Positions 48,001 to 51,000 of a stretch of DNA of 64,000 nucleotides are shown one piece after another. Position 1 is the first letter of the stretch. Every line of letters begins with the position of its first letter. The DNA comes from Tubiluchus corallicola (Eukaryota; Priapulida; Priapulimorpha; Priapulimorphida; Tubiluchidae): NCBI GenBank assembly GCA_030141605.1, contig JAQGDQ010000472.1, positions 62,001-126,000 on the forward strand, written 5' to 3'. The notes below the pieces were generated by a model that searched no databases, was not told where the DNA came from, and saw only the letters and a program-made list of their open reading frames with translations. The translations under genes were made by a program, and so were the position numbers.

Positions 48001-51000
48001 TACGACGCATCCTCTTTGGGAAGCCCACGAATGACGCATCCTCTTTGGGAAGCCCACGTACGACGCGTCCTATTAGAGCTAGTCACGTACCACGAGTCCT
48101 ACTTGGGAAACCCACGTACGACCTGTATATTTCTGCACTTTTATCCATATTTTTATGGATTATTGCTACACATTCAGTGCAAACGGTATGTAGGAAGCTC
48201 CTTCAGTAATGAGAGATGTATGTGACTGCGGAAACCGAGCTGTTCAAAGGCCGAGTTTGCGAAAAATTGAGGTTAAAAATCGATCAATTTCGCTTTGATC
48301 ATAGAGTCCCTTACTTGAGAGGTAATTTACTTGGGTTTCTGTTGCACGGGACTTGAAGATATTGTCCCTTATAATCGAAAGTCCCTTATATCCGAGCACC
48401 TTACATACTAAGATTTTTATAAGGAAAAACTTTACGAAATATCCGGACCGGTGTTAGTGATCGCTTACAAGAGAATGTCCCTTATAAGCGAGTACCCGAG
48501 GTTGACTGTAGTCTAAGAATTTCTTTCAATTAAATCAGTTATTTGTATGTAACTTTACCGTACTTATGTGATCGAAAATAATTCATGTTGATAATAATAA
48601 TAAACATTGTGAATAAAAGAAATTAAAAAATCATTTATTAAAAAAATCCAGCAATAAAAATGCTGTTCAATGACTAACCATTATGGTGGCAAAAACCATT
48701 TTTTTAAAAATAACTCGTTTTTGCATAAATCAAGTCTTACTGTATCTGTGCTATCGATAAATCGACACGCTAGTCTATACTGTGAATCGAATTTTATGCC
48801 ATGTCGAAAATGTTCTAAATCAAATTTGATGTAGAAAATACGTGTATGAAAAAATTACAAGCTAATACACTTACGATACAGGATCTTTATCATACATTTA
48901 CGATACAGTACCTTTATCATACACTTACGATACAGTACCTTTATCATACACTTACGATACAGTACCTTTATCATACACTTACGATACAGTACCTTTATCA
49001 TGCACTTACGATACAGTACCTTTATCATGCACTTACGATACAGTACCTTTATCATGCACTTACGATACAGTACCTTTATCATGCACTTACGATACAGTAC
49101 CTTTATCATGCACTTACGATACAGTACCTTTATCATACACTTACGATACAGTACCTTTATCATACACTTACGATACAGTACCTTTATCATACACTTACGA
49201 TACAGTACCTTTATCATACACTTACGATACAGTACCTTTATCATACACTTACGATACAGTACCTTTATCATACACTTACGATACAGTACCTTTATCATAC
49301 ACTTACGATACAGTACCTTTATCATACACTTACGATACAGTACCTTTATCATACACTTACGATACAGTACCTTTATCATGCACTTACGATACAGTACCTT
49401 TATCATACACTTACGATACAGTACCTTTATCATACACTTACGATACAGTACCTTTATCATGCACTTACGATACAGTACCTTTATCATACACTTACGATAC
49501 AGTACCTTTATCATACACTTACGATACAGTACCTTTATCATACACTTACGATACAGTACCTTTATCATACACTTACGATACAGTACCTTTATCATACACT
49601 TACGATACAGTACCTTTATCATACACTTACGATACAGTACCTTTATCATACACTTACGATACAGTACCTTTATCATACACTTACGATACAGTACCTTTAT
49701 CATACACTTACGATACAGTACCTTTATCATACACTTACGATACAGTACCTTTATCATACACTTACGATACAGTACCTTTATCATACACTTACGATACAGT
49801 ACCTTTATCATACACTTACGATACAGTACCTTTATCATACACTTACGATACAGTACCTTTATCATACACTTACGATACAGTACCTTTATCATACACTTAC
49901 GATACAGTACCTTTATCATACACTTACGATACAGTACCTTTATCATACACTTACGATACAGTACCTTTATCATACACTTACGATACAGTACCTTTATCAT
50001 ACACTTACGATACAGTACCTTTATCATACACTTACGATACAGTACCTTTATCATACACTTACGATACAGTACCTTTATCATACACTTACGATACAGTACC
50101 TTTATCATACACTTACGATACAGTACCTTTATCATACACTTACGATACAGTACCTTTATCATACACTTACGATACAGTACCTTTATCATACACTTACGAT
50201 ACAGTACCTTTATCATACACTTACGATACAGTACCTTTATCATACACTTACGATACAGTACCTTTATCATGCACTTACGATACAGTACCTTTATCATGCA
50301 CTTACGATACAGTACCTTTATCATACACTTACGATACAGTACCTTTATCATACACTTACGATACAGTACCTTTATCATACACTTACGATACAGTACCTTC
50401 ATCATACACTTACGATACAGTACCTTTATCATACACTTACGGTACAGTACCTTTATCATACACTTACGATACAGTACCTTTATTGTCAACTCTGTTAAAG
50501 TACCACTTTTGAAAGCATCAGAGACAATGACGAGAATTTGTGCACTATAATTTCTCTCTTGTAACCCAGGAGGAAGAATACATGGAGGTAAAATAGGATC
50601 TATACTGTAGTGCAGCAACATTCCTGCAAAATATAGATATTATTGTTTATTTTGTTTATTTATTTCACATCAACACAAACACACAATTAATACATTATAA
50701 GAAACAAAAAGTTATCAATAATTCGATGAATAACAAACAGTAAGATACATAATAGGAAGCAAATTTTGGAACAAATGATTTAAACTGTCTTTAGACGTAA
50801 GTCAACCTATGGTAAACAAAGATAGTGATATCGCTACTTCCTTTAATACTGGTGTCTAAACAATGTTATGTACAGCATCATTATAAATATACTAACTTGA
50901 CTCTCAAAACACTGTGGGGTTGAAAGATAAACAAGAGAATTATCGCTGTTGTATGTTGCTTAGTAAATTCGTATACAGTTTACATTGAGCACATAACTAG

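What the first reader, a model, noticed from the sequence alone, without database searches (positions are those of the whole stretch)
48886..50623. About 59 tandem copies of a real splice donor, in frame and stop-free
Seen: the exon 8 donor (AAAG/GTACTG, minus strand) is the first member of a 27-bp array whose every unit contains the same exon-end/intron-start sequence. The unit is nine codons with no stop and the exon ends in phase 0, so splicing from the n-th copy would add n blocks of VLYRKCMIK to the REJ module and still join exon 9 in frame. Each unit also carries a stronger-looking donor (ATC/GTAAGT) in the wrong phase. Inference: this could produce length-variable receptor ectodomains or a self-competing donor array that slows splicing; allele length would probably vary between individuals.
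Basis: partly seen in the sequence, partly recalled or inferred. Interest (0 to 1): 0.9.

Follow-up and report, generated by a model that had tools for sequence, protein, structure and literature searches.

The report
Minisatellite born on a splice donor
A short piece of DNA that straddles an exon's end has been copied about 60 times in a row, so a receptor gene carries a long row of look-alike splice sites; this is a striking new case of a known oddity and probably not a working switch.

Summary
In a REJ/polycystin-1-like gene (minus strand), exon 8 ends at 50478. A 27-bp array of 59 full units plus a degenerate 60th starts 6 nt inside the exon. All 59 units repeat AAG|GT in phase 0, stop-free; 57 of 59 also carry ATC|GTAAGT, out of frame.

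The whole genome adds the key tests. At 11 of 12 array-free related places, GT lies at the same phase-0 point, so copy 1 sits on the ancestral junction. Two sister copies carry the array: 60.4 units (a 2.45-kb inverted fragment) and 26.7 units (a collinear second gene copy). Both have lost the open frame, after about 16 and 5 units; unit variants show no coding constraint, and some repeated donors are mutated. A second array (31 bp) in the same gene also begins at a donor; three relatives have single-copy sequence there.

Best reading: an unstable minisatellite that nucleated over a donor, like lancelet 'mirages' and the human IFI6 donor minisatellite. Splicing probably uses copy 1, with possible leakage. 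An adaptive ladder of isoforms is not supported but not excluded; no RNA was available.

The parts
50478..50623 (-). exon 8 (REJ module), 146 nt, entered in phase 1 and ending in phase 0; acceptor TTTTGCAG|GAATG, donor ATAAAG|GTACTG
   Evidence: REJ Pfam match of hand-joined exon frames E 6.2e-26
50476..50477 (-). first donor (D1, AAAG|GT), at the junction point of array-free relatives
   Evidence: 11 of 12 array-free related places have GT at the same projected phase-0 position
48865..50483 (-). 27-bp minisatellite: 59 full units (50477..48885) plus a degenerate 60th; its first 6 nt lie in exon 8
50466..50467 (-). second donor (D2, ATC|GTAAGT) of unit 1, +10 nt, out of frame; exact in 57 of 59 full units
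46012..46168 (-). exon 9, begins in phase 0 (VYPVGHKPD...); acceptor ATTTTTAG|GTTTATCC
5664..5802 (-). transmembrane exon of the same gene, donor TGTAG|GTAGTT
   Evidence: hand-joined 3' exons match polycystin-1 chains in the PDB, E 1.5e-12
5374..5661 (-). second donor-abutting array: 31 bp x 9.3, starts at intron position +3

Best explanation
The array is an unstable minisatellite that arose by tandem duplication of a 27-nt piece covering the last 6 nt of exon 8 and the first 21 nt of the intron. Later slippage, unequal exchange or gene conversion expanded and evened it out (inferred). Because the seed contained the donor, each unit carries a copy of it. Splicing most likely still uses the first AAG|GTACTG, at the ancestral junction; the rest of the array is removed as intron (inferred). 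Use of later AAG|GT copies, or of ATC|GTAAGT (frameshift and a stop nine codons after the block begins), is tolerated noise and not a selected output (inferred). Shown: the array, its position, the shared junction point of relatives, different lengths in sister copies, loss of the frame in those copies, and no sign of constraint on units or donors.
For: Array-free relatives have GT at the same projected phase-0 point: GTAAGG (3), GTAAAC (2), GTAAGT (2), GTAAAG (2), GTATGC, GTGAGT; 11 of 12 places. Array lengths are 59.7, 60.4 and 26.7 units in three copies. The frame breaks at codon 53 after exon 8 in the second gene copy and at codon 147 in the fragment. 4 of 16 variant kinds are silent (3 of 15 without the degenerate last unit), against 0.20-0.25 expected. 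The repeated GT is mutated or deleted in units 2, 16, 18 and 58 of the fragment and unit 6 of the second copy. Both gene copies keep open exons: 33 of 1263 nt differ over 9 exons with no stop or frameshift, against 147 of 2683 in the post-array intron (Fisher P 4e-5). A second donor-abutting array in the same gene has single-copy sequence at the same place in three close relatives, which shows the birth step by comparison. Reported lancelet cases are said not to disturb splicing (PMC3087553 and PMC3902484, passages).
Against: No RNA was available; donor choice is inferred. The first donor is weak (GTACTG, U1 -6.5 kcal/mol, with a loop in the pairing) against the relatives' GTAAGG (-10.0), and every AAG|GT copy is alike, so nothing in the sequence marks the first copy as preferred. 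Predicted pairing does not favour it either (mean unpaired probability 0.33-0.34 for all 12 copies modelled), and the out-of-frame ATC|GTAAGT looks more open in units 1 and 2 (0.45, 0.56) than in units 3-12 (0.24-0.39). Exon 8 by itself is as diverged between the two gene copies as the intron (7 of 146 against 147 of 2683, P 0.85), with 5 amino-acid-changing and 2 silent differences; exon D has 9 and 1; pN/pS over 9 exons is 0.65. So constraint on exon 8 is not shown. IFI6 shows that downstream units can be used (PMC4526556, passage).
Confidence: 0.7

Rival explanations
1. Length-variable receptor: splicing uses many AAG|GT copies, so the protein carries 0 to 58 blocks of VLYRKCMIK in the REJ module, and allele length sets the range.
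For: All 59 full units keep AAG|GT and the frame in the window copy. The copies are alike as donors. Human IFI6 uses two downstream units of a donor minisatellite, giving three mRNAs (PMC4526556, passage).
Against: The second gene copy can give open messages from only the AAG|GT donors of units 1-5; unit variants look unconstrained; openness in frame has a 0.376 chance. The Lys/Arg/Cys-bearing block would be inserted inside the REJ module.
Confidence: 0.12
2. Self-competing donor array: dozens of equal U1 sites, and the slightly better out-of-frame ATC|GTAAGT sites, slow splicing or divert it to frameshifted, decayed messages, so array length tunes the dose of the protein.
For: ATC|GTAAGT is exact in 57 of 59 full units and scores -7.6 against -6.5 kcal/mol; joining from it in unit 1 gives VLYRLSGRS*. 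It is predicted to be more open in units 1 and 2 than further on.
Against: Taken together, nine exons stay open and are less changed than the intron in both gene copies. Lancelet cases are said not to disturb the mRNA. No expression data.
Confidence: 0.15
3. Assembly artefact: the array or its copies are inflated or false.
For: Three copies sit in one assembly, one inverted about 22 kb away; inverted pairs of alike REJ exons occur on other contigs (C2061, C2160), which could be joined haplotypes.
Against: The three arrays differ in variants and two of them in length, and they lie in different surroundings. The second array at the transmembrane exon also differs in length between two copies (9.3 and 6.3).
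Confidence: 0.03

Closest known systems
Lancelet 'mirages' (Adh3, globin BflGb6/BflGb9, PGBD5, troponin C)
   Same: Tandem repeats that span an exon-intron boundary, many units with splice signals, unequal lengths between haplotypes (PMC3087553, PMC3902484; passages). Adh3 units are given as 10-72 bp, so 27 bp is within the range.
   Different: Here 59 near-identical units in phase 0 and stop-free; BflGb6 has 6 and 3 units of 150-160 bp in its two haplotypes. Copy numbers for Adh3 were not seen. Organism unnamed here, and the effect on mRNA is unknown.
Human IFI6 (6-16, G1P3) donor minisatellite (Turri et al. 1995; only its title and citing passages seen)
   Same: A minisatellite whose units act as splice donors.
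   Different: In IFI6 the use of two downstream units is reported from mRNA (PMC4526556, passage); here it is untested. IFI6 unit size and copy number (12 bp, about 26) and its place at an exon end are recalled, not read.
Introns made from tandem duplications (Rogers 1989; Zhuo et al. 2007; known from recall and from the citation in PMC3087553)
   Same: Tandem copies of AG|GT at an exon-intron border.
   Different: Here the intron is shared with relatives; only the array is new.

Membership tests
Mirage (exon-intron boundary minisatellite) | Tandem array that includes an exon-intron boundary | tested here: met
   Array starts 6 nt inside exon 8
Mirage (exon-intron boundary minisatellite) | Units carry splice signals | tested here: met
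   AAG|GT in 59 of 59 full units
Mirage (exon-intron boundary minisatellite) | Length instability | tested here: met
   59.7, 60.4, 26.7 units in three copies of one genome; variation between individuals or within a body not tested
Mirage (exon-intron boundary minisatellite) | Normal mRNA splicing despite the array | not testable with these tools
   no RNA data
Mirage (exon-intron boundary minisatellite) | Found in lancelets (the cases in the passages read) | tested here: inconclusive
   Genome unnamed; no COX1 match; GFP search silent but with no positive control; let-7 and PF14830 searches did not complete
IFI6-type donor minisatellite | Array of donors starting at an exon end (feature recalled) | tested here: met
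IFI6-type donor minisatellite | Downstream units used as donors in mRNA | not testable with these tools
   no RNA data
REJ / polycystin-1-like gene | REJ domain | tested here: met
   PF02010 E 6.2e-26 on hand-joined frames that include some intron residues; E 3.2e-6 on the frame at 63188
REJ / polycystin-1-like gene | Polycystin-1-like membrane part | tested here: met
   6a70_B Polycystin-1 E 1.5e-12; GPS and PLAT matches below their cut-offs and no Pfam match for two of the four pieces given

The most novel reading that the evidence does not exclude
The array is a working donor ladder: the spliceosome picks among dozens of equal in-frame donors, so one allele yields a broad set of receptor ectodomains whose longest member is set by array length, in a fast-changing REJ module that could serve recognition between gametes or individuals.
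Probability: 0.1. Interest if true: 0.85.

Novelty: new member of a known kind. Interest (0 to 1): 0.45.

Why it matters
It is a clean natural experiment on how the spliceosome chooses among dozens of near-identical donors, with a 60-unit and a 27-unit gene copy in one genome and array-free relatives as controls. It also shows, in one gene, two minisatellites that begin at donors. That suggests exon-intron borders can seed tandem arrays, a proposed route to new introns and shifted exon ends.

Tried and rejected
Selection for in-frame units: not supported, since variants are 4 silent of 16 and the frame is lost in both sister copies. Special RNA fold: the first control (whole-sequence shuffles) gave z -4.86, but tandem arrays of shuffled units gave z -1.78, with 5.7% folding as well, so this is not claimed. 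A simple 10-nt insertion before an ancestral GTAAG donor: the alignment of the unit to relatives' intron starts is ambiguous, and the introns of three relatives find no match in the post-array intron. Exon 8 skipping: its 146 nt would shift the frame. In-frame rescue of the second donor by an AG 13 nt into exon 9 (VLYRHKPD): possible on paper, not pursued. Exon 8 looked more diverged than the other five of six exons (P 0.014), but with exon D corrected and nine exons this fades (P 0.09). Whether the C1858 copy is an allele or a paralogue is unresolved: its contig ends near window 24.8 kb, exons L, N, P, Q and R have no second copy in the stretches given, and exon P has at best an 83% relative elsewhere. 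A 26-bp array at C2191 is about 73% alike; its relation is unclear.

Rows left out: exons D, I, J and K were dropped from the coding comparison; one search restored D, I and K, but J (87.1%, 6 gaps) stayed out because its borders are unclear. Alignment gaps (125 columns) were left out of the intron count. Donors of exons H, I, J, K, L, V and W were not used in the donor-distance count because their ends are unclear, and one search used some donor positions up to 21 nt off and left out three simple-sequence arrays; one search mends both. Loci were cut for 8 of 22, 20 of 30, 30 of 38 and 0 of 7 matches. In one search one relative (C1625) projects to GTCATT, with GTAAGT 6 nt further. In one search five loci have no intron there, and three (L057, L058, L066) project to a non-GT point.

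Full report
What was checked. The array lies on the minus strand of a multi-exon gene. TRF gives 48865..50483, period 27, 60.0 copies, 98% matches. Reading it unit by unit gives 59 full units from 50477 to 48885 and a degenerate 60th. Exon 8 runs 50623..50478, and its last six bases, ATAAAG, are also the last six of the unit, so the array begins inside the exon. AAG|GT occurs in 59 of 59 full units, GTAAGT in 58 and exact ATC|GTAAGT in 57. In the exon's frame the unit reads VLYRKCMIK, and no stop occurs in the 537 codons read.

The gene. Hand-joined exon frames match Pfam REJ (E 6.2e-26; the joined text holds some intron residues). Hand-joined 3' exons match polycystin-1 chains (E 1.5e-12). 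GPS and PLAT matches fall below their cut-offs, and two of four pieces match no Pfam family. So this is a REJ-bearing, polycystin-1-like gene, which points to an animal.

Is being in frame special? Shuffling the 27 bases leaves a given frame open in 37.6% of cases, and the real unit is open in four of six frames. A stop-free frame therefore needs no selection. The array's position is less ordinary. Of 10 hand-picked window arrays (period 10 or more, five or more copies), 2 begin within 10 nt of one of 13 hand-placed donors, against 0.043 expected (P 0.0009). With three simple-sequence arrays that also pass the size limits it is 2 of 13, 0.055 expected, P 0.0015. If only the second array is counted, since the first was the reason for looking, P is 0.042 or 0.054. 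This is suggestive, not firm.

The ancestral junction. A genome search with exons 8-9 gave 30 matches, of which 20 were cut out as loci. They cover 15 distinct places with exon 8: three with the array and twelve without. Eleven of the twelve have GT exactly at the projected phase-0 point: GTAAGG in the three closest relatives (C2157, C1409, C110), then GTAAAC twice, GTAAGT twice, GTAAAG twice, GTATGC and GTGAGT. In the twelfth (C1625) the projection falls 6 nt short of GTAAGT. So the first copy sits on the old junction, and the intron is older than the array.

Sister arrays. The array exists at two more places as a close copy. Copy B is a 2.45-kb inverted fragment on the same contig, about 96% identical to window 50859-48428, with 60.4 units. 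Copy C is a collinear second gene copy on C1858, with introns mostly about 93-94% alike and 26.7 units. In copy C the T of the GT donor of unit 6 is deleted, which removes that donor and shifts the frame; the first stop is codon 53 after exon 8. Only the AAG|GT donors of units 1-5, and by arithmetic the second donor of unit 6, could then give an open message. In copy B a 5-nt deletion in unit 17 breaks the frame (stop at codon 147). Pooled over the three arrays there are 16 kinds of base change against the consensus, 4 silent and 12 not (3 of 15 silent if the degenerate last unit of the window array is left out); 0.20-0.25 silent is expected without constraint. The GT of AAG|GT is changed or deleted in units 2, 16, 18 and 58 of B and unit 6 of C. 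The numbers are small. A fourth, 26-bp array at C2191 is about 73% alike; its relation is unclear.

Is the gene alive? Between the window copy and copy C, nine comparable exons differ at 33 of 1263 sites, with no stop or frameshift. The intron after the array differs at 147 of 2683 (Fisher P 4e-5). pN/pS is 0.65, and REJ exons D (9 changing, 1 silent) and 8 (5 and 2) evolve fast; exon 8 alone is as diverged as the intron (7 of 146, P 0.85). So the gene as a whole appears to be kept open in both copies, which suggests that exon 8 to exon 9 joining works in frame with 60 and with 27 units, but exon 8 itself shows no constraint. Whether the copies are alleles or paralogues is not settled.

Donor strength. 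With a recalled U1 end, AAG|GTACTG scores -6.5, ATC|GTAAGT -7.6 and the relatives' AAG|GTAAGG -10.0 kcal/mol. Nine other donors of the same gene range from -5.7 to -10.7. The first donor is weak but within the gene's own range, and all AAG|GT copies are alike. Joining from ATC|GTAAGT of unit 1 gives VLYRLSGRS*. Predicted pairing does not favour the first AAG|GT (0.33-0.34 unpaired in all 12 copies modelled), while ATC|GTAAGT is more open in units 1 and 2 than further on, which is against my reading. The strong fold of the array (z -4.86 against whole-sequence shuffles) mostly reflects being a repeat (z -1.78 against tandem arrays of shuffled units).

A second case in the same gene. The transmembrane exon 5802..5664 has donor TGTAG|GTAGTT, and a 31-bp array begins at intron position +3: 9.3 copies here and 6.3 in an inverted copy at C1862:36197. 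The relatives C110, C2157 and C1409 have the matching intron start GTAGTTATCCTG once, without an array. In no other locus cut out in that search (30 of 38 matches, two of them repeats of the same places) does an array start within 15 nt of the projected junction; the nearest start at +51, +91 and +99, and for three loci the projection misses a GT. By comparison this shows the birth of a donor-abutting array.

How it most likely works. Shown: the array, its place, the age of the junction, its changing length between copies, lack of visible constraint on units, and open exons in both gene copies. Inferred: a duplication of the border seeded it; slippage or exchange enlarged and evened it; splicing uses mainly the first copy, perhaps with leakage. 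The mRNA-level claim is the weak step.

Comparison with print. Tandem repeats over exon-intron borders are known in lancelets as 'mirages', with unequal haplotypes (6 and 3 units in BflGb6), Adh3 units of 10-72 bp, and reportedly regular splicing (PMC3087553, passages; also PMC3902484, passage). The human IFI6 minisatellite supplies donors, and two downstream units are reported as used (PMC4526556, passage; the original 1995 paper was seen only as a citation). PMC2812944 (passages) reports variable internal repeats at human exon-intron borders linked to new introns; PMC12783039 (passages) describes repeat arrays in first introns of earthworm metallothionein genes. So the kind is known. Features that I did not meet in the passages read are the large number of near-identical in-frame donor units, two such arrays in one gene, and array-free relatives beside them. 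My literature searches were made, in an open-licence library only; I make no claim of absence from print.

Verdict. The adaptive reading is not supported by the sister copies, and the likely answer is a border-seeded, largely neutral minisatellite. It still makes a good test bed for donor choice.

Noticed in passing
C1858:177494-178839 (L012 7494-8839) against window 51966-52013: A 56-bp x 24 array about 90 nt upstream of an exon in the second gene copy, where TRF finds only a 22-bp x 2.1 repeat in the window copy: rapid array growth between the copies.
   Followed up: partly
C1858:175075-176025 (L012 5075-6025): A 74-bp x 12.9 array in the second gene copy with no comparable TRF row at the matching window stretch, about 53.5 kb.
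   Followed up: no
window 33101-38475: A 35-bp x 153 array in the same gene; the part of the second copy that aligns to it is only about 1.3 kb.
   Followed up: no
C2172, C198, C1930, C1882, C1923: Five loci with polycystin-like matches inside open frames of 2437-2748 codons, without the intron that other relatives have there: perhaps retrocopies.
   Followed up: no
C2061:26421/57006 and C2160:314696/414591: Pairs of alike REJ exons in opposite orientation on one contig: inverted duplications or joined haplotypes.
   Followed up: no
window 13551-15247, + strand: Two long open frames with a secreted, leucine-rich look ([19 protein letters not shown]...) on the opposite strand inside this gene's span; family not searched.
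   Followed up: no
window 23480-24568, - strand: A long cysteine-rich open frame of about 360 codons within the receptor gene's span.
   Followed up: no
window 53176-53271, - strand: REJ exon with 9 amino-acid-changing and 1 silent difference between the two gene copies, a hint of fast or diversifying change.
   Followed up: partly
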